This document shows, piece by piece, positions 20,212-60,368 of a stretch of DNA of 64,000 nucleotides. The DNA comes from Treponema primitia ZAS-2. Its GTDB lineage: Bacteria; Spirochaetota; Spirochaetia; Treponematales; Breznakiellaceae. Made by a program: the position numbers and the translations under genes. The stretch spans positions 1,240,001-1,304,000 of the forward strand of contig NC_015578.1 in the NCBI RefSeq assembly GCF_000214375.1, in the 5' to 3' direction. The notes beneath the pieces are model-generated. The model made no database searches. It was not told the origin of the DNA and saw only the letters and a list, made by a program, of their open reading frames with translations. The first letter of the stretch is position 1; the number at the start of each line of letters is the position of its first letter.

Positions 20212-22860
20212 TTAGATGCCGGTTGCAACCGTTACTGAGCTAATCTTTAGATCATCATCGCTAGTGGGGCCTGTTATGGTGTTATTGGCGGCGGCGCCGG
20301 TAATCCTGGTTAAGGTACCGGAACCACTTGCTGAAGAGTTTCCTGTTAAGCCAGTGTCAACAGCTATGCCATTGGTGCCATCCCCCAATGCAGTTTTAAG
20401 AGCTGCATTACTAAGCGTACCAGTTGCAGCGCCAGTGCCAAAGTACAGTATGGATGTAGGATCCAGGGTAACGGTGGCTGCGGGGCTTGCCGTTTTGAGC
20501 ACCAGGGAGCCTTTATCAGCAAAGTTAATAGCAGTAACTTCGTTGCTATCACCCTCTACAACATAAAGGTAATCCGAGGCGTCACCTGCCTGGGTTATTG
20601 CTGCGCCGGCTTCTATTGCCGTTAATGTCGCATCGTCTTCATGAGCTTGAATGCCCGTAACGTTGTAAGTATCGGTATAAGATATGGCGATAGCTCCTCC
20701 TGCTGCTCCAACTCCCTGCCATTGGCCGGTAATGGTGGTAGAACCTGCAAGAAGCTTCCCAGTCCCTTTGAGTATTGCACCCTTAGTACCAGTACCCGCC
20801 CCTAACGCTAAAGCGCCGCCGTCATTAATATTGACTAGCGCTGCATTGGTGAGGCTTTTTCCCGGTTGAATAATGAGAGGGCTCTCAAGATTGAGGGTTC
20901 CGTTGATGGTAATGTTCCCATCAGGGGAAGAATAATCCGCCGGAGTCACATTCGTACTTTTAATCGTAAGGCTTTTCCCAGCAGCTATGGTAAGGTTAGT
21001 CCCGGCGCCACCTGCTTTGATATGATCGATGGAAAGGTCTTGAATGCCCAGGAGCTTGCTTATTACAGTGGATTGATGGCCTTCCGTGAAGGTGGCCTCG
21101 AGGGTGCCGTTTCCGCTTGCGGTAAGCCCGCTGGCGGTAAATGTGCCTTCTGGGGCAGTGAAGGTCCCGGCTACGGTGAGTTTCGTAAGCTTTTCAAAGG
21201 TGCTGATGGCGGCAGTGAAGGTCCCGTCTACGGTAAGTTTCGTAAGTTTTTCAAAGGTGCCGGCAGGGGCGGTGAAGGGCTGCTTCACGGTGAGTTCTGT
21301 AAGCTTTTCAAAGGTGCCGGCGGTGGCAGTGAAGGCCCCGTCTACGGTGAGTTTCGTAAGCTTTGCAAAGGTACCACTGGCAGCGTTGAAGGTTCCGTTC
21401 ACGGTGAGGTCTGTAAGGGCCGCAAATACTGCGCCGGTGGTATCAACATCAATGGTGACACCTGCGGGTATTGTCAGGGTCGTTGCCCCAAAGTCTGCGA
21501 CTTCATTATAGGTAACGCTGGAGCCGGTCACGAGTTTTGCCAGGTTGGCCGTGTTAAGGGCAAAGTAGTTATTATTTCCTGCCGTCGCCGCTGTGGCAAG
21601 GTCACCCTTCAGTTTTGCGTTGCCTACAATAGCGAGGGTATCGGTGAGAGTGATAGTGGCGGCGTTTGCTAAGACAAAGGTATTTCCTTCCAGCTCACTC
21701 ACTTTGAAAGCGGGGTTGACGGCGCCTAAGGTAAGTTTATTGGCTGGAACTGCTGCGGCAAAAGACGTAAGGGCAGCGCCATATACGCCGTTAGCAGCAA
21801 CGAAACCGCTTATGCTGTCTACCTGAAGACTGGTTGCATTTGCAATGGATACGTCCTGGTTGTTCCCAATTATGGCGCTAAGTTTTAAGGGGACAGGGGC
21901 GCCGGTGGTGGCAGGACCGGGGATGGTAAGGGTGGTCGCGCCGGTTGCCGCGCTGAAGTCCAGGGTTGCATCGGATACATCGAAATTGCCGGCTAGTGCA
22001 AGAGCTGTGCCGGTGGCGAGTTTAAGCGTGCCCTTTACAACCACGCCCGGGTCAGTAGCACTACCTCCGGTAATCGCAATGCCACTGGGAACGGTAACAA
22101 TCGCGTCTTTGCCTATAATAAGCTTGCCACCGGAAGTAGTGTTGATTGAACTGACAGTATTTGTGCCGATGAGGGTCACCGTTTTTCCTGCGCGGATTTC
22201 AGTGGCTGCAAGCGCGGTACCAGCGTTGGTGATAACCAGGTCATCACCAGTCCCGGGACTATTATCCCAGTAATCGGCTATGTTTGTACTAGTTATTGGT
22301 GTTGTTCCGCCCAGGACTTTTTTGGCACTCCCGGCAAATGAAACGCCGGACGGCGATGTAAACTGGCCTATATCGTATATTATAATGCCCGTGCCGTTGG
22401 AAAATCCGCCTGGCTGAAAAGCTAAAGTGCCGCCTGCGCCTGTGTAGGCATTAAACACGGCGCCTTCTCTTATTTTGAGGTCGCCATAGACGTTAAGGGT
22501 TCCGCCGCTCAGAACCACTGGGTTGCCTATCACCTCAAGGGTGCGGCCTGCCGGTACTTCACCTTCAACGTCTGTCACCGAGCTTGCAAGGTAGACATTG
22601 CCTCCGTAGGTGGTGCCTGCGCGGTATTTTTCACCTTTTGTAATCTCAAATGCCGCTGCAAGGTCCGCTGCTCTTACAATGGGGCCCGTAAGGAATGCCG
22701 GGCCTAAAATGGTATCCCCTTCTGCGCCGGGTTCGCCCGCCGTGCCGCTTATGCCGTTTATACCGCTTGTGCCGTCAGCCGGACTTTCGCAGCTGATGAT
22801 AAAGCATGACAGCGTAAAGACGCTAATCATGACCAGAATAGAAATCTTTTTCAAATTCAT
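20212..22860 (-). CDS. Repeat-rich surface lipoprotein, predicted beta-helix
   Basis: An 882-residue protein with a lipoprotein signal (ILVMISVFTLSCFIISC) and a GGGAG ribosome site. A short Gly-X-Y-like stretch (GINGISGTAGEPGAEG) follows the lipid anchor. The body is Ala/Gly/Thr-rich with alternating strand-like segments (GGTLNVYGDLKI, GKSLTIKSTN) typical of right-handed beta-helix adhesins. Five 19-residue units of the pattern TFEKLTKLTVDGTFTA sit near residues 480-570. It has no recognised catalytic motif. It is probably a cell-surface or outer-membrane protein of spirochete type; adhesion or a structural role is inferred. Confidence 0.75.
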   Translation of the reverse strand: MNLKKISILVMISVFTLSCFIISCESPADGTSGINGISGTAGEPGAEGDTILGPAFLTGPIVRAADLAAAFEITKGEKYRAGTTYGGNVYLASSVTDVEGEVPAGRTLEVIGNPVVLSGGTLNVYGDLKIREGAVFNAYTGAGGTLAFQPGGFSNGTGIIIYDIGQFTSPSGVSFAGSAKKVLGGTTPITSTNIADYWDNSPGTGDDLVITNAGTALAATEIRAGKTVTLIGTNTVSSINTTSGGKLIIGKDAIVTVPSGIAITGGSATDPGVVVKGTLKLATGTALALAGNFDVSDATLDFSAATGATTLTIPGPATTGAPVPLKLSAIIGNNQDVSIANATSLQVDSISGFVAANGVYGAALTSFAAAVPANKLTLGAVNPAFKVSELEGNTFVLANAATITLTDTLAIVGNAKLKGDLATAATAGNNNYFALNTANLAKLVTGSSVTYNEVADFGATTLTIPAGVTIDVDTTGAVFAALTDLTVNGTFNAASGTFAKLTKLTVDGAFTATAGTFEKLTELTVKQPFTAPAGTFEKLTKLTVDGTFTAAISTFEKLTKLTVAGTFTAPEGTFTASGLTASGNGTLEATFTEGHQSTVISKLLGIQDLSIDHIKAGGAGTNLTIAAGKSLTIKSTNVTPADYSSPDGNITINGTLNLESPLIIQPGKSLTNAALVNINDGGALALGAGTGTKGAILKGTGKLLAGSTTITGQWQGVGAAGGAIAISYTDTYNVTGIQAHEDDATLTAIEAGAAITQAGDASDYLYVVEGDSNEVTAINFADKGSLVLKTASPAATVTLDPTSILYFGTGAATGTLSNAALKTALGDGTNGIAVDTGLTGNSSASGSGTLTRITGAAANNTITGPTSDDDLKISSVTVATGI
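21141..21430. repeat. 57-bp tandem repeats in the lipoprotein gene
   Basis: About five imperfect 57-bp units, each encoding 19 residues of the TFxKLTxLTVxGxFTAxxG pattern. Unit number could change by slippage while the frame is kept. Confidence 0.75.
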
Positions 22861-28999: not shown

Positions 29000-29080
29000 G
29001 GCCTATCGTCCTCCCTTGAACCAGGCCCCCATACTCTATTATGAATAATAGTCTTAAGGTGTATGCAAGGGATAAAGGCA

Positions 29081-29172
29081 GGGAGGGGAGGGCAATTCGC
29101 CTCTGTCCCCGTCTCTGGAATTCCCTGCCGGAGGAGACCTACCGGGCTCCGCAGGCAGACTCTACAGGTTAG
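29081..29172. repeat. Long palindromic repeat, copy 1, left part (split by IS110)
   Basis: Begins with GGGAGGGGAGGGCAATTCG and includes GTCTCTGGAATTCC and CTACAGGTTAGGG, in the same order as the intact copy at 35766-35890. Its right end is at 30571-30593, beyond the insertion sequence. Confidence 0.85.
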
Positions 29173-29203
29173 GGCTCCCTCGCGCAAGCGTCTATGATAA
29201 ATG

Positions 29204-30328
29204 TCAAGCACTTTTTTTCAAAACCGCCGCATTTTTTTGCCCTTTCAGGAATCGGCGGTATTCGGCCATCTTTGCCTCATGTTTTTTGGGATCCCGGCCA
29301 TAATGATACTCCCCTTTTTTCAGCATCTGAAAGATTTCTGCAAAGACTCGCCGCCGTAAACCCGTTCGTACTAGCCCCGGCTTCTTGTACTCCGCCAGCC
29401 GGTCATACCAGCGCCGGAGTTTAGGGCTGACCGCCATCACATGGTTGAGGGACTGGGTTAGCAGGGTCGCCGACAGTTTCCGCCCTTTCTTGTTGGTTCC
29501 CCGGATACTCGTTGAGGTATTGGAATTGGCCACATGGGGCGCCGACCGCAGATAGGAGGTAAAGGCCTTGGCGTTTCTGAATCGGCTCACCTCAATGATG
29601 TCTGCGATGATGGCTATGGCAATGAACACGCTCACCCCCTTCATGCTGGTCAGGATTTCTATCTGCGCCATAAACGGGGCGGCCTGAAGTAATACCTGGT
29701 CTTTCAGGGCTTCCGCATCGACCTCGTCCCGCTCAAGCCGGTCCAGCAGCTGGTTTAGTTGGAAGCGGAGAACCGGATCATCGGAGATGTCCCGTATCTC
29801 CTGGCGGCTCTTCCGACCGAAGATTTCTTCCTGGGTAAAACCGTACAAGTGCTCCTTCAGCAGGGAGTGTATCCGGTTTTTCAGCTGGGTATTCTGCTTC
29901 TTGTAGAGTCGGTAGGTGGAAAACAGACTCCGCAGGTCCTGGATCTCCTTCGGGGGGATGGTTACCGGGGAGATCGTCTGCTCCCGGGAAAGTACCTGCA
30001 TCTTGAGTATCCGACACAATTTGTCCGCATCTATCTTGTCCGTATTACACCGGGCAAGGCTAATCTGTTTCAGCTCGTAGGTATTGGCGATGACTACCTC
30101 CTTCACCCGGTCCCGAAACAGACGGGCAAACGAGAAGGTCGTTATCGTCGCCTCTACGAGCACGTAGGTATCTACCGTCAGGGTGGCATAAAAGGCCGCC
30201 AGCCCTTCCGCGTCCAGCTCAAAGGTCTTGACGACCCGGTCTTTTCGGGGGTCTTCCATCGATGCCCACTCATCCCGGTAACAGCAAGTAAACCGGTTGG
30301 TATGCAGATCAATGCCGATAAAGTTCAT
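29204..30328 (-). CDS. IS110-family transposase (DEDD recombinase)
   Basis: A 374-residue recombinase starting at ATG 30328 behind GGAGG; an upstream in-frame start at 30340 is less likely. The N-terminal RuvC-like DEDD domain opens FIGIDLHTNRFTCCYRD (first Asp), with YVLVEATITTFSFARLF (Glu) and CNTDKIDADKLCRIL (paired Asp). The C-terminal Transposase_20 domain holds SMKGVSVFIAIAIIADI and AFTSYLRSAPHVANSNTS, including the region of the conserved catalytic Ser. It looks intact. Family members are guided by an element-encoded bridge RNA. Confidence 0.92.
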   Translation of the reverse strand: MNFIGIDLHTNRFTCCYRDEWASMEDPRKDRVVKTFELDAEGLAAFYATLTVDTYVLVEATITTFSFARLFRDRVKEVVIANTYELKQISLARCNTDKIDADKLCRILKMQVLSREQTISPVTIPPKEIQDLRSLFSTYRLYKKQNTQLKNRIHSLLKEHLYGFTQEEIFGRKSRQEIRDISDDPVLRFQLNQLLDRLERDEVDAEALKDQVLLQAAPFMAQIEILTSMKGVSVFIAIAIIADIIEVSRFRNAKAFTSYLRSAPHVANSNTSTSIRGTNKKGRKLSATLLTQSLNHVMAVSPKLRRWYDRLAEYKKPGLVRTGLRRRVFAEIFQMLKKGEYHYGRDPKKHEAKMAEYRRFLKGQKNAAVLKKSA

Positions 30329-30340
30329 CTGAACCTCCAC

Positions 30341-30570
30341 AGAGAAAAGATTGATTGTTCGGTTGAATTCCGGTATACTGATACCATGCGTCTATTCGGG
30401 GTGTTGATCGGGCTAAGGACCAGCCCCCAAGAAGCAAATGCGGCTACCGGTTGTTAATCGAGTTCACGGGGTCATTACTGCTCCAGCTTGCGCTACAACC
30501 GGTAGTTGTTCTTCCGAACGCCTACAGTATACCAGGTAACCGCATGCTTTTATCATAGCTTCGAGTTCTT
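30341..30570 (-). ncRNA. Candidate bridge (seek) RNA region of the IS110 element
   Basis: This is the long non-coding leader upstream of the transposase. It contains nested inverted repeats: CTACCGGTTGT (30444-30454) with ACAACCGGTAG (30495-30505), and GGTATACTG (30371-30379) with CAGTATACC (30525-30533), giving a long stem with internal loops. That is the shape expected for an IS110 bridge RNA, which in this subgroup lies 5' of the recombinase. The guide loops were not assigned. Confidence 0.6.
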
Positions 30571-30593
30571 GAGGCGAATTGCCCTCCCCTCCC
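30571..30593. repeat. Long palindromic repeat, copy 1, right end
   Basis: GAGGCGAATTGCCCTCCCCTCCC, the inverted partner of the left arm at 29081, displaced by the IS110 insertion. Confidence 0.82.
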
Positions 30594-30696
30594 GGTCACT
30601 GTCTATACAATCACCATTAAACCAATCCATTACTGATACAATAATTATTCTCTAAATCATTGGACATTTAACAATTTCTTTACTATTGTTTAAGAG

Positions 30697-33642
30697 GTGA
30701 GACGAACAACATTGTTACTGCTTCTTACCTTTCCCCTGCTCTGCTGTACCGGCAAGTCGGAATATTCTGCAAAAAACAGTAAAAGAAACCCGGAGTATCC
30801 CCCGCATTATCGGAGTTATAAAGAAATACCCGGGGTGAGTGATGAAGAAATAAAAGCCATCGAAGCCCTGAAGGAAACTTACAGTTTTTTTACCTACGGT
30901 ATGAACTACAGTTCCGACTGTTTTTACCAGAATGACGGAACCCTTGGGGGATATGCGGTCCTGTTCAGCCGGTGGTTGGAGGATCTTTTTGGTATACCCT
31001 TTGTGATAAAAATTCACGAATGGGACGAACTTGTTTCCGGCCTGGAATCCGGGGAAATTGGTTTTACCGGGGAATTAACCGCCACTGAGGAGCGCCGGAA
31101 AATCTACCACATGACCGATGCTATCTCCGAGCGGCCGGTTATATTTGTGCAGATCCGGGGCAGGGAAACCCTTGGGGAGCTGGTGAAGCTGCGGCCCCTG
31201 CGTTTGGGATTCTTTTCCGGGTCTATCTTTCGTGATCTAGTGGCTCCCTTTATCAGCGGCCCATGGGAGTCCTTCTTCATTGATGATTACGAGACTGTGT
31301 ATCGTATGCTGAAATCCGGTGAGATCGACGCCTTTTACGATGGCAGTACCCCAGAGGCGCTCTTTGATCAATACGAGGATGTGGTTACCATGGAATTTTC
31401 TCCCCTCATCTATGAGCATGTGTCCTTCAGTACCCGGCGGGAAGAACTGGCGCCTGTGATATCGGTGGTGCAGAAATACCTGGACCAGGGGGCGATCTAT
31501 CATCTGACCAACCTGTATAATCAGGGGCAGGATGAATATCAGCGGCACAAACTCTACGACCGCTTGACCCGGGAGGAACAGGCATGGTTACTGAGCCGAC
31601 AGGCTGTGGATGAACCCATACCGGTGGCTGCAGGGTACGATAATTATCCTGTCAGTTTTTACAACCAGCAGGAGCGTCAATGGCAGGGGATAGTCTGGGA
31701 TCTGCTTAAAAAAGCGGAGGAGTTAACAGGGCTGCGCTTTGTCCGGGTGAACTGTGACAGCAACCAGAGGGCGGAGCTTTCGGAGCTGATGGATTCCGGA
31801 AAGGCGGTGATGATCGCTGAGCTTATCCCCCCTGAAAGCCTGTCCAGCCGTTATTTACTGGCCAATAGCCCCTATCAAAGCGATTACTTCGCCCTTTTAT
31901 CCGCCATGAATTACCAGGATATCAGCTTAAATGATGTGCCCTTTACCAGGATAGGGTTGATAAAAAATTCCGCCTGGACGGAGGTGTTTAATACATGGTT
32001 CCCAAACCACACTAATACTGTGTACTACAATAACAGTACTCTGGCTTTTGATGCCCTGGGCAGGGGGGATGTGGAGATGGTCATGGCGGACCGCAACCAG
32101 CTCCTATACCTGACTAATTATATGGAACAGCCCTGGTTCAAGGCGAACCTGATTTTTGACCGGACTTATGATTCTTACTTTGGGTTTAACCCCGGTGAAG
32201 GGATACTCTGTTCGATTATGTCCAAGGCCCAGGGTTTTATCAACACAAAAATTATCGTGGATCTCTGGAGCCGGCGTATCTTCGATTACCGGGGCAAGCT
32301 GGCCCGGGCCCAGGTTCCCTATCTGGTGGGCCTTTCCCTGCTCCTGGCCTGTGTCCTGGTCCTGGTAACAAGCCTGCTGGTCCGGCGCAGGAATACCGGC
32401 AGATACCTGGAAGCCACTATAAACGAGCGTACCAAGGCCCTGGAGATTCAAACTGCCGCAGCAAAGGTAGCCTCCCAATCCAAGAGTGAATTCTTGGCCC
32501 GGATGAGCCATGAAATCCGCACACCCCTGAACGCTATCATCGGTATGACCCACATTGCCCGAAAGTCCGCAGGAACCCTGTCGGCAGCAAATCTGAGTTC
32601 CGAAAGAAACCGGATGGTCTCCGCAATAGAGGAAATTTCACTGGCATCTTCTCATCTCCTGGACATACTTAACGATGTCCTGGATATGTCAAAGATCGAG
32701 TCGGGAAAATTTATCCTGGTTAATGCGGCTTTTTCAATGGAACAAGCCCTGGAAGAGGTATCGGATATCATCAGGAACCGCTGCCTGGAAAGGGGTGTCA
32801 AATTTGTCATCAACTTTGGGGCACTCCCTGCCACAGGGGTTCTGGGCGATCGGCTGCGACTTAAACAGACACTGATCAACCTCCTGGGAAATGCGGTGAA
32901 GTTTACCTCCAAGGGAGGATCCGTTACTTTTAGTATGGAACTCTGCGGGGAAACCGATGAACAGATCCTTCTTAAATTCACGGTAACCGATACAGGCATA
33001 GGCATGACCGAAGAGCAGTCTTCCCGGCTCTTTACTGCCTTTGAACAGGCTGATGAAAGTATTGCTGCCCGCTTCGGCGGTACCGGCCTGGGGCTTGCTA
33101 TCAGCCAGAGATTGGTGCGCCTCATGGGAGGTAATATTACCGTTAAGAGTAAAATAGGGGAGGGTTCTGAATTTTCTTTCACCATAGGCCTTGAAAAAAC
33201 CGAGTACGCCCGGGAACAGTCGGTGGATCCCCTGTTGTCCCTGCCGGATTTGACAGGCCGGCGTTTGCTGTTGACTGAGGATATTGAAATAAACCGGATC
33301 ATACTCCGGGAACTGCTGTCTGAAACCCATGTGGAGATCCGGGAAGCGGTGGACGGACAGGATGCCCTGGAACAGTTTTCTGCTTCCGATTCAGGATACT
33401 ACGATCTTATCTTCATGGATGTGCAGATGCCCCGCATGGACGGTTACGAAGCGACCCGCCGGATCCGCGCCCTGGATCGCCGGGATGCAGAAAATGTACC
33501 GATTGTTGCCATGACCGCCAACGCCTACCGTGAGGATATAGAGAAAGCCCTTGCCTCAGGGATGAACGATCACCTGGCGAAACCCATCGATATCCAGGCT
33601 ACAGGGCGGGCCCTGGCAAAATGGCTGGTGAAGAAAACTTGA
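30697..33642 (+). CDS. Hybrid sensor histidine kinase with two periplasmic binding-protein domains
   Basis: A 981-residue protein. It starts at a GTG (30697) with a signal-like start RRTTLLLLLTFPLLCC; a TTG at 30712 is better spaced from AGAGGTGA and is an alternative. Two SBP_bac_3-type solute-binding domains (about 60-280 and 300-530) are followed by a membrane helix (~548-567). HisKA with FLARMSHEIRTPLNAIIG (His605), HATPase (NLLGNAVKFTSKGG; GTGLGLAISQRLV), and a C-terminal receiver with IFMDVQMPRMDGYEA (Asp908) complete it. This BvgS-like layout suggests it senses a small solute and relays phosphate onward. No partner regulator adjoins it. Confidence 0.9.
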   Translation: MRRTTLLLLLTFPLLCCTGKSEYSAKNSKRNPEYPPHYRSYKEIPGVSDEEIKAIEALKETYSFFTYGMNYSSDCFYQNDGTLGGYAVLFSRWLEDLFGIPFVIKIHEWDELVSGLESGEIGFTGELTATEERRKIYHMTDAISERPVIFVQIRGRETLGELVKLRPLRLGFFSGSIFRDLVAPFISGPWESFFIDDYETVYRMLKSGEIDAFYDGSTPEALFDQYEDVVTMEFSPLIYEHVSFSTRREELAPVISVVQKYLDQGAIYHLTNLYNQGQDEYQRHKLYDRLTREEQAWLLSRQAVDEPIPVAAGYDNYPVSFYNQQERQWQGIVWDLLKKAEELTGLRFVRVNCDSNQRAELSELMDSGKAVMIAELIPPESLSSRYLLANSPYQSDYFALLSAMNYQDISLNDVPFTRIGLIKNSAWTEVFNTWFPNHTNTVYYNNSTLAFDALGRGDVEMVMADRNQLLYLTNYMEQPWFKANLIFDRTYDSYFGFNPGEGILCSIMSKAQGFINTKIIVDLWSRRIFDYRGKLARAQVPYLVGLSLLLACVLVLVTSLLVRRRNTGRYLEATINERTKALEIQTAAAKVASQSKSEFLARMSHEIRTPLNAIIGMTHIARKSAGTLSAANLSSERNRMVSAIEEISLASSHLLDILNDVLDMSKIESGKFILVNAAFSMEQALEEVSDIIRNRCLERGVKFVINFGALPATGVLGDRLRLKQTLINLLGNAVKFTSKGGSVTFSMELCGETDEQILLKFTVTDTGIGMTEEQSSRLFTAFEQADESIAARFGGTGLGLAISQRLVRLMGGNITVKSKIGEGSEFSFTIGLEKTEYAREQSVDPLLSLPDLTGRRLLLTEDIEINRIILRELLSETHVEIREAVDGQDALEQFSASDSGYYDLIFMDVQMPRMDGYEATRRIRALDRRDAENVPIVAMTANAYREDIEKALASGMNDHLAKPIDIQATGRALAKWLVKKT

Positions 33643-35512: not shown

Positions 35513-35637
35513 CTCCGGGAGGGGAGGGGATTACCCCCGGCCCCTAACCTGTAGAGCCTGCTTGCGGAGCCCAGTAGGTCTCCTCCAGCAGAGAATTCCA
35601 GAGACGGGTCCAGGGGTAATCCCCACCCCTCCCGGAG
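35513..35637. repeat. Long palindromic repeat, copy 3 (inverted orientation)
   Basis: Arms CTCCGGGAGGGG and CCCCTCCCGGAG bound 125 bp; the arms extend about 28 bp with one mismatch. Inside are CCCCTAACCTGTAGAG and GAATTCCAGAGACG, the same motifs as copies 1 and 2 but in reverse order. Confidence 0.85.
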
Positions 35638-35765: not shown

Positions 35766-35890
35766 GGGAGGGGAGGGCAATTCGTCTCCGCCCCCGTCTC
35801 TGGAATTCCTCCCCGGAGCAGACCGCGTAGCGGGCTGACGGAGGGGAATTCTACAGGTTAGGGGGTGGAGGCGAATTGCCCTCCCCTCCC
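35766..35890. repeat. Long palindromic repeat, copy 2 (intact)
   Basis: Terminal inverted repeats of about 30 bp (two mismatches) starting GGGAGGGGAGGGCAATTCG. The centre holds GTCTCTGGAATTCC, a GC-rich inner hairpin, and CTACAGGTTAGGG. It folds as one long hairpin. Confidence 0.88.
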
Positions 35891-58898: not shown

Positions 58899-60368
58899 AT
58901 GGTAGAAGTATTAGCGGCGCGGAAACAACAGGTTCTCGAAAAAGGGAAGGATGTATTCAATATTGAATGCGAAAAGCCCAGTACTGCCGGTTCTGTGAGC
59001 CAGCGGGCCTGCGTGTTTTGCGGGTCCCGGGTGGTGTTGTACCCCATTGCGGATGCGGTACACCTTATCCATGGGCCCATAGGCTGCGCGGCCTATACTT
59101 GGGAGCTGCGGGGTTCCCTGTCCAGCGGACCAGAGCTTCACCGGCTTAGTTTTTCTACGGATATCCGGGAACATGAAGTTATTTATGGTGGTGAAAAGAA
59201 ACTCTATGCTGCCTTGAAAGAACTCATCGGCGCCTATAAGCCTAACGCAGCTTTTGTGTACTGTACCTGCATTATCGGCCTTATCGGGGATGATGTGGAG
59301 GCGGTGTGTGCAAAAGTCGAAAAGGAAGTGGGTATCCCGGTCATCCCGGTTCACTCCGAAGGTTTCAAGGGTACCAAGAAGGATGGGTATAAGGCTGCCT
59401 GTGAAGCGGCGTTTAAGCTTGTCGGAAAGGATGATATCACTCCGGTTTCTAAAACGAGCATTAATATTCTTGGCGAATTTAATCTTGCCGGGGAAACCTG
59501 GATCATAAAGGATTACTACAAGCGCATGGGAGTGGAGGTTACTGCCTGCATTACCGGGGACGGAAGGGTGGCGGAGATTGGACGGGCCCACCGGGCCAAG
59601 CTCAATGTGGTGCAGTGTTCCGGCTCCATGACCTACCTTGCAAAAATGATGGAAGAAAAGTACGGCATCCCCTATATCCGGGTCTCTTATTTTGGAATAG
59701 AAGATATGAGCAAGGCCCTCTACGATGTGGCGGAATATTTTAAGGATGAAACTATTCTGCACAATACCCAGGAGCTGGTGAAGTCCGAGGTGAACGCATT
59801 GCTGCCGAAGCTTACGGAATACCGGAAAGATCTGGAGGGGAAAAAAGCCGGGGTCTATGTGGGCGGGTCTTTCAAGGCTTTCTCCATGGTTAAGGCCCTG
59901 CGCCATCTGGGTATGGAAACCGTGGTGGTAGGTTCCCAGACCGGCTCCCCGGAGGATTATGAATACCTCAAGGAAATTACCAATGAGGGGACCATCATCC
60001 TGGATGACACTAATCCCCTGGAACTTTCGGGATTTATTTTGGAGAAGGGGGCGGATCTCCTGATCGGCGGGGTCAAGGAACGGCCAATTGCCTATAAAAT
60101 GGGCATTGGTTTCTGCGATCACAACCATGAGCGGAAGGAAGCTCTGGCAGGTTATGAGGGGATGCTCAACTTTGCCCGGGAAGTCCATACATCGGTGACC
60201 AGTCCGGTGTGGAAATATTCTCCTGCACGCATTAAGGCTGCGGAAGCTGCCCAGGCTGCGGAAGCTGCCCAGGCTGCGGAAGCTGCCCAGGCTGCGGAAG
60301 CTGCCCAGGCTGCGGAAGCTGCCCAGGCTGCGGAAGCTGCCCGAGCTGGGAAGGAAATTTTGGTATGA
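58899..60368 (+). CDS. nifE: FeMo-cofactor scaffold protein NifE with C-terminal Ala/Glu/Gln repeat tail
   Basis: A 489-residue NifE homologue. Start ATG 58899 has a GAGG 5 bases upstream. Conserved Cys38 (RACVFCGSRVVLYP), GPIGCAAYTWELRG, and CTCIIGLIGDDVEAVC match the NifE/NifD family; it forms the NifEN scaffold on which the FeMo-cofactor precursor is completed. After residue ~445 the tail is six copies of AEAAQA from an 18-bp tandem repeat, absent from typical NifE. The stop overlaps nifN. Confidence 0.94.
   Translation: MVEVLAARKQQVLEKGKDVFNIECEKPSTAGSVSQRACVFCGSRVVLYPIADAVHLIHGPIGCAAYTWELRGSLSSGPELHRLSFSTDIREHEVIYGGEKKLYAALKELIGAYKPNAAFVYCTCIIGLIGDDVEAVCAKVEKEVGIPVIPVHSEGFKGTKKDGYKAACEAAFKLVGKDDITPVSKTSINILGEFNLAGETWIIKDYYKRMGVEVTACITGDGRVAEIGRAHRAKLNVVQCSGSMTYLAKMMEEKYGIPYIRVSYFGIEDMSKALYDVAEYFKDETILHNTQELVKSEVNALLPKLTEYRKDLEGKKAGVYVGGSFKAFSMVKALRHLGMETVVVGSQTGSPEDYEYLKEITNEGTIILDDTNPLELSGFILEKGADLLIGGVKERPIAYKMGIGFCDHNHERKEALAGYEGMLNFAREVHTSVTSPVWKYSPARIKAAEAAQAAEAAQAAEAAQAAEAAQAAEAAQAAEAARAGKEILV
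60237..60344 (+). repeat. 18-bp tandem repeat (6 units) in the nifE 3' end
   Basis: Six units of GCTGCGGAAGCTGCCCAG; five are identical and the last ends CCGA. The unit is a multiple of three, so copy number can change without losing the frame. Confidence 0.95.

What the first reader, a model, noticed from the sequence alone, without database searches (positions are those of the whole stretch)
29081..30593. IS110-family element inserted into a long palindromic repeat
The repeat intact at 35766-35890 is split here, with the IS between CTACAGGTTAGGG and GAGGCGAATTGCC. IS110 elements are steered by a bridge RNA, and several known ones choose palindromic repeats. The intact copies give an in-window view of the unoccupied site.
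Basis: partly seen in the sequence, partly recalled or inferred. Interest (0 to 1): 0.7.

Follow-up and report, generated by a model that had tools for sequence, protein, structure and literature searches.

The report
RNA-guided IS110 inside nested hairpin repeats
A jumping gene that carries its own RNA address label has landed in a 23-letter hairpin repeat that itself sits inside a bigger hairpin repeat, and the RNA label matches the small hairpin exactly, so the target choice can be read straight from the sequence.

Summary
The window (genome of 4,059,867 bp, the size I remember for Treponema primitia ZAS-2) carries a 1,373-bp IS110-family element, split into a ~130-bp palindromic repeat with about 40 copies in this genome. 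Between palindrome and IS lies a split 23-nt mini-hairpin, AAGAACTCG|CTTGCGCGAGGGAG. The same mini occurs elsewhere, once identical, with compensatory stem variants, in 82 of 200 related genomes.

The IS encodes a bridge/seek RNA upstream of its transposase. Its two guides match the split mini at 14 of 14 bases. In relatives, guides match their own flanks far above re-pairing (0 of 100,000 permutations on each side). One close relative carries a changed guide (GAGCCCG) and sits against the matching mini variant.

So IS110 was steered to the mini, not to the long palindrome. The element mixes IS1111-type features (sub-terminal inverted repeats, guide order) with an IS110-type upstream RNA.

The minis replace exactly 4 nt (NGNC) at every site where the empty sequence can be read or inferred. 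I found no description of that, and its mover is unknown. No wet-lab evidence.

The parts
29076..29174 (+). 5' arm and core of the long palindromic repeat (LPR), ending ...CTACAGGTTAGGG
   Evidence: matches the intact repeat at 35766-35890
29175..29190 (-). 3' part of the 23-nt mini-hairpin (tnp strand: CG-CTTGCGCGAGGGAG), including the CG core at 29189-29190
   Evidence: the 23-mer rebuilt from both sides is AAGAACTCGCTTGCGCGAGGGAG, found without an IS elsewhere
29191..30563 (-). IS110-family insertion sequence, 1373 bp (one CG core counted)
   Evidence: ends fixed by alignment with relatives
29191..29207 (-). right end (RE): TTGACA (-35-like, 29202-29207) ... sub-terminal inverted repeat ATCATAG, then A-CG
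29204..30328 (-). transposase, 374 aa from ATG preceded by GGAGG (378 aa from GTG at 30340); DEDD_Tnp_IS110 and Transposase_20
30375..30545 (-). bridge/seek RNA region (two-loop RNA); limits approximate
   Evidence: conserved two-module structure in 11 relatives; single-sequence fold z -2.3
30487..30493 (-). 5' target guide GCGCAAG, complementary to the right flank CTTGCGC
   Evidence: 7/7 match
30459..30465 (-). 3' target guide GAACTCG, identical to the left flank GAACTCG
   Evidence: 7/7 match
30432..30436 (-). 5' donor guide TGCTT (complement of left-end AAGC)
   Evidence: sequence
30389..30395 (-). 3' donor guide ATAGACG (identical to right end ATAGACG)
   Evidence: sequence
30552..30557 (-). 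-10-like box TATGAT in the left end; with RE TTGACA it forms TTGACA-17-TATGAT when the ends are joined in a circle
   Evidence: 17-nt spacing in 9 of 9 elements with both ends
30562..30570 (-). 5' part of the mini-hairpin (tnp strand: AAGAACT-CG); the CG core at 30562-30563 is shared
30571..30597 (+). 3' arm of the long palindromic repeat
   Evidence: complementary to 29081-29103
35766..35890 (+). intact long palindromic repeat, without mini-hairpin or IS
35513..35637 (-). second intact copy of the long palindromic repeat, in opposite orientation

Best explanation
Three layers were laid down in order. (1) A long hairpin repeat (~130 bp, conserved ~67-nt core, variable but self-complementary arms) was present upstream of the sensor-kinase gene at 30697. 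(2) A 23-nt mini-hairpin (AAGAA-CYYGC-TTNC-GCRRG-GGAG) replaced 4 nt of its 3' arm. (3) An IS110-family element with bridge RNA then inserted, without target duplication, at the CG dinucleotide inside the mini-hairpin. The 5' target guide (GCGCAAG) pairs with the right flank and the 3' guide (GAACTCG) specifies the left flank. The excised circle joins RE and LE into a TTGACA-17-TATGAT promoter that would drive the bridge RNA and transposase. Shown from sequence: the nesting, the ends, the 14/14 guide match, guide-flank agreement across relatives, the conserved two-loop RNA, the junction promoter spacing. Inferred: that the RNA is made and used, the circle, the order of events, and that the mini is mobile.
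For: Ends conserved in relatives with different flanks. Guide-flank agreement: left 63 of 72 bases over 12 distinct guide/flank pairs against a permutation mean of 32.4; right 52 of 77 over 11 pairs against 22.2; 0 of 100,000 permutations reach either. The window element itself matches 14 of 14. L165/L206, a relative with 85% identity over the matched protein part, has two changes in the left guide (GAGCCCG), and its flank AAGAGCCC|G is the matching mini variant. The guide segments fall in the unpaired, hypervariable columns of an otherwise conserved fold. Junction promoter spacing is 17 nt in 9 of 9. Intact minis without IS. Empty sites with 4 nt where occupied ones have 23 nt.
Against: Only one copy of this exact IS exists in this genome, so its target preference cannot be tallied here. 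L165 ends at a contig edge, so only its left flank can be checked. L065, L085 and L087 match poorly on the right side (1-3 of 7). No other perfect 14-nt target exists in the genome, so the element could not spread here without mismatch tolerance. A family-wide search for the right IS end joined to a mini half found only the window copy. No RNA or transposition data.
Confidence: 0.9

Rival explanations
1. The IS recognises the long palindrome by its cruciform or hairpin shape rather than by an RNA guide, as first implied.
For: It does lie in a strong hairpin (stems about -70 kcal/mol by duplex fold), and IS110/IS1111 elements in REP and attC hairpins are known (PMC1525189, PMC11187229).
Against: Guides match the mini, not the long repeat. 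Relatives with the same ends sit in non-hairpin sequence such as TTTAACCAC|G, with guides to match. About 40 other long palindromes in the genome lack the IS.
Confidence: 0.04
2. The bases I call mini-hairpin halves are simply the outermost ends of the IS, and the IS inserted directly into the long palindrome between CTACAGGTTAGGG and GAGGCGAATTGCC.
Against: The 23-mer is intact and IS-free in another genome (L051) and in variants in this genome. Relatives of the IS end at the CG core and carry other bases beyond it.
Confidence: 0.02
3. The dispersed mini-hairpins are footprints left by excision of IS110 elements rather than independent repeats.
For: The window IS and L165 lie at or against minis.
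Against: IS110-type excision restores the target and leaves no scar (established knowledge). Minis occur in 82 of 200 family genomes, many without this IS. Stem variants covary. Some minis lie in reading-frame-like sequence.
Confidence: 0.03

Closest known systems
IS621 and other IS110 elements with bridge RNA (PMC11208160, PMC11208158)
   Same: DEDD transposase, two-loop RNA from an upstream non-coding region, target and donor guides around a dinucleotide core, promoter rebuilt at the RE-LE junction, insertion in a dispersed palindromic repeat (IS621 uses REP)
   Different: CG core here instead of CT; guide order is the reverse of IS621 (the segment complementary to the top strand comes first); clear sub-terminal inverted repeats; no PDB sequence match to IS621 or any other chain
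IS1111 group (ISEc11, ISKpn4, ISPa11; PMC11187229)
   Same: sub-terminal inverted repeats (CTATGATAAAA) with asymmetric extensions (5 and 3 here, 7 and 3 typical); top-strand complement precedes bottom-strand match
   Different: non-coding RNA lies upstream of tnp (usual in IS110, rare in IS1111); longer transposase (374-378 aa against 330-350)
IS elements in REP sequences (IS621, ISPpu9/10; PMC1525189, PMC8450116)
   Same: an IS110-family element sits in a short dispersed palindrome
   Different: here the short palindrome is itself nested in a longer palindrome, and two relatives target two stem variants of it
REP / CGTC-tagged palindromes, RPE, cyanobacterial short dispersed repeats (PMC3733652 and general knowledge)
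   Same: 20-40 nt dispersed hairpins, intergenic and sometimes genic, with compensatory stem variants
   Different: no GTAG or CGTC tag; precise replacement of 4 nt at the insertion point; none described for Treponema in the papers I could search

Membership tests
IS110 superfamily (DEDD transposase) | DEDD_Tnp_IS110 plus Transposase_20 domains | tested here: met
   NCBIfam NF033542 169.5 bits against cut-off 140
IS110 superfamily (DEDD transposase) | C-terminal G--P----S(t)G motif | tested here: inconclusive
   serine conserved (PHVANS) but followed by N, not G, here and in the one relative read
IS110 superfamily (DEDD transposase) | target-specific insertion without target duplication around a shared dinucleotide | tested here: met
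   single CG shared by target and donor; the two flanks joined at one CG give the 23-nt mini exactly
bridge/seek RNA system | non-coding RNA with guides matching both target flanks | tested here: met
   14/14 in the window; 63/72 and 52/77 across relatives, permutation 0 of 100,000
bridge/seek RNA system | donor-binding guides matching RE and LE | tested here: met
   ATAGACG and TGCTT match the RE-LE junction ATAGA-CG-AAGC by sequence; not permutation-tested because the ends are conserved
bridge/seek RNA system | RNA expressed and bound by the transposase | not testable with these tools
   needs RNA-seq or co-purification
IS110 group proper | non-coding region upstream of tnp | tested here: met
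   about 220 nt upstream, 13 nt downstream
IS110 group proper | bottom-strand match precedes top-strand match in the RNA | tested here: not met
   order is reversed
IS1111 group | sub-terminal inverted repeats of 11-13 bp with asymmetric extensions | tested here: met
   10 of 11 in the window copy, 11 of 11 in L064; extensions 5 and 3
IS1111 group | top-strand complement precedes bottom-strand match in the RNA | tested here: met
IS1111 group | non-coding RNA downstream of tnp | tested here: not met
   it lies upstream; the seekRNA paper notes a few such exceptions
REP (GTAG/RAYT type) | GTAG-type tag and associated RAYT transposase | not tested
   no GTAG in the mini consensus; RAYT gene not searched in this genome

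The most novel reading that the evidence does not exclude
The 23-nt mini-hairpin is a mobile (trans-mobilised) element of Treponemataceae that enters DNA by replacing exactly four nucleotides of the form NGNC, usually after CCC, and that serves as a landing pad tracked by IS110 bridge RNAs, which change their guides in step with the mini's compensatory stem variants.
Probability: 0.35. Interest if true: 0.75.

Novelty: new variant of a known kind. Interest (0 to 1): 0.52.

Why it matters
It is a natural case in which the target of an RNA-guided recombinase can be read, base by base, from an occupied site, near-empty sites and re-targeted relatives. It adds a lineage that mixes IS1111-type ends and guide order with an IS110-type upstream RNA, which bears on how the two groups split. 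The mini-hairpin with precise 4-nt replacement may be an undescribed way for very small DNA repeats to spread; occupied and empty sites in multicopy repeats make that testable.

Tried and rejected
Rfam search of the region gave only chance matches far below the families' cut-offs. The idea that the long palindrome is a sense-oriented 5' leader RNA: rejected, its neighbours show no strand bias (16 same, 18 opposite). The idea that it is an integron attC site: rejected by eye, no outer RYYYAAC/GTTRRRY boxes. No PDB sequence match. ISEc11 and ISEc21 reference records could not be fetched, so no tree against named references was built. No mini-hairpin in viral contigs for the CC/GG stem variant; no long repeat in plasmids. 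Plasmid and phage relatives of the transposase are below 30% identity. Two further left-end pattern hits (L207, L209) are chance matches, not IS ends. Literature on such repeats in Treponema: nothing found.

Full report
What is there. The window lies in a single-contig genome of 4,059,867 bp; that size is the one I remember for Treponema primitia ZAS-2, and a related genome in the set (3,855,671 bp) fits T. azotonutricium ZAS-9. A transposase gene on the minus strand (29204-30328, ATG after GGAGG; 30340 if GTG) has both IS110 domains. On either side lie the two halves of a long palindromic repeat, with intact copies at 35766-35890 (+) and 35513-35637 (-).

The true ends. A protein search of 294 genomes of the order, a scan of genome contigs, and a pattern search gave a clade of relatives. 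All share CG-AAG-CTATGAT at the end upstream of the transposase and (T)TATCATAG-A-CG at the other, while the bases beyond differ. This puts the window IS at 29191-30563, 1,373 bp.

The hidden layer. The left-over bases join, through the shared CG, to AAGAACTCGCTTGCGCGAGGGAG on the transposase strand. This 23-mer stands intact and IS-free in another genome (L051), and variants lie at 2518428, 1498187, 317270 and further sites of this one. From 38 copies the consensus is AAGAA-CYYGC-TTNC-GCRRG-GGAG; the two variable stem positions covary (CC/GG 24, TC/GA 6, CT/AG 3, and single TT/AA, GG/CC, AC/GT), with a preference for CCC before and G after. A degenerate pattern finds it in 82 of 200 family genomes, up to 62 hits in one; the reversed-pattern control gives 0 or 1 per strand.

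Minis replace four bases. Where the empty site can be read from another copy of the host repeat: TTTAATACCC-CGCC-CTTTAGG becomes TTTAATACCC-[23]-CTTTAGG (L100; also L119 in another genome), and ACATACCT-CGTC-C becomes ACATACCT-[23]-T (L102). In the long palindrome, GGAATTCCC-CGCC-GTAGCAG becomes [23] in L092 and L192, and TTCCAG-AGAC-G becomes [23] in L051 and nearly so in L094. In L031 and the window copy the lost four bases (CGCC, TGTC) are inferred from the opposite arm. All four distinct tetranucleotides fit NGNC. I searched the held literature and found no description; that library is incomplete.

The guide RNA. About 220 nt upstream of the transposase fold into two modules conserved in 11 relatives, with 10 of 37 pairs showing changes on both sides; the single sequence folds at z -2.3. 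The two hypervariable unpaired segments of the first module are GCGCAAG and GAACTCG. They specify GAACTCG|CTTGCGC, which is the split mini, 14 of 14. Over relatives, own flanks are matched at 63 of 72 (left) and 52 of 77 (right) bases against 32 and 22 for re-paired flanks; no permutation of 100,000 reaches either. Weak right-side matches (L065, L085, L087) remain unexplained. The second module carries ATAGACG and TGCTT, matching the RE-LE junction. Joining the ends gives TTGACA (or TTGACT)-17-TATGAT in all 9 elements with both ends, as in IS621 (PMC11208158).

Re-targeting. L165 (= G004 contig 125, a Spirochaetia MAG; 85% identity over the matched protein part) has the left guide GAGCCCG and the left flank AAGAGCCC|G, which is the CC/GG mini variant GAGCCCGCTTGCGC; the right flank is off the contig. 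Several relatives (L064 in G147; L140, L141, L157-160 in G003/G004) sit at TTTAACCAC|G or the like; where their guides can be read they match. A 56%-identical relative in this genome lies at CGCATAAC|G with its own, partly matching guide.

Kind. Guide order (top-strand complement first) and the sub-terminal inverted repeat with a 3-bp right extension are IS1111 traits, whereas the upstream non-coding region is the IS110 arrangement (PMC11187229). The serine of the S(t)G motif is kept, but the next residue is asparagine. Plasmid and phage relatives are below 30% identical.

The long repeat. Forty distinct copies (most from this genome, the rest from relatives) pair their own arms at 93% of positions over 24 bp but other copies' arms at only 60%; mean arm identity is 50%. 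The core is strongly conserved. Copies often come as divergent pairs; flanking genes show no strand bias. What the repeat does is unknown; self-templated correction of the arms during replication would explain perfect but divergent stems (inference).

Verdict. A new variant of a known kind: RNA-guided IS110/IS1111-type element in a dispersed hairpin. The nested mini-hairpin, the matched re-targeting and the 4-nt replacement lift it above routine.

Noticed in passing
L100, L102, L092, L192, L051, L094, L031, window 29175-29190/30562-30570: 23-nt mini-hairpins replace four bases (CGCC, CGTC, AGAC, TGTC, i.e. NGNC) at each site where the empty sequence can be read or inferred; no enzyme is known for this.
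   Followed up: partly
window 35513-35637 and 35766-35890; about 40 places in G000: Long palindromic repeat with a conserved ~67-nt core and arms that differ between copies yet stay complementary within each; often in divergent pairs 130-450 bp apart. Not in Rfam.
   Followed up: partly
L064, L140, L141, L157-L160; also L099, L101: The motif TTTAACCACGAAG...CACACGG recurs as a target of related IS110 elements and as a host site of mini-hairpins.
   Followed up: partly
L066, L085, L087, L002: Related IS110 elements of T. primitia and its relatives insert at TAAC|G sites, three of them followed by TGTATACGAA; could be an attC-like or another repeat.
   Followed up: no
window 10401, 24635, 27482, 45195: Another short dispersed palindrome, CCGACTTTAGTCGG, four copies where 0.03 are expected.
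   Followed up: no
L118 and L133: Mini-hairpins at the same place in similar, gene-like sequence of two genomes, suggesting an old insertion inside a coding region.
   Followed up: no
window 21139-21423 and 60217-60360: 57-bp and 18-bp tandem repeats, probably within coding sequence.
   Followed up: no
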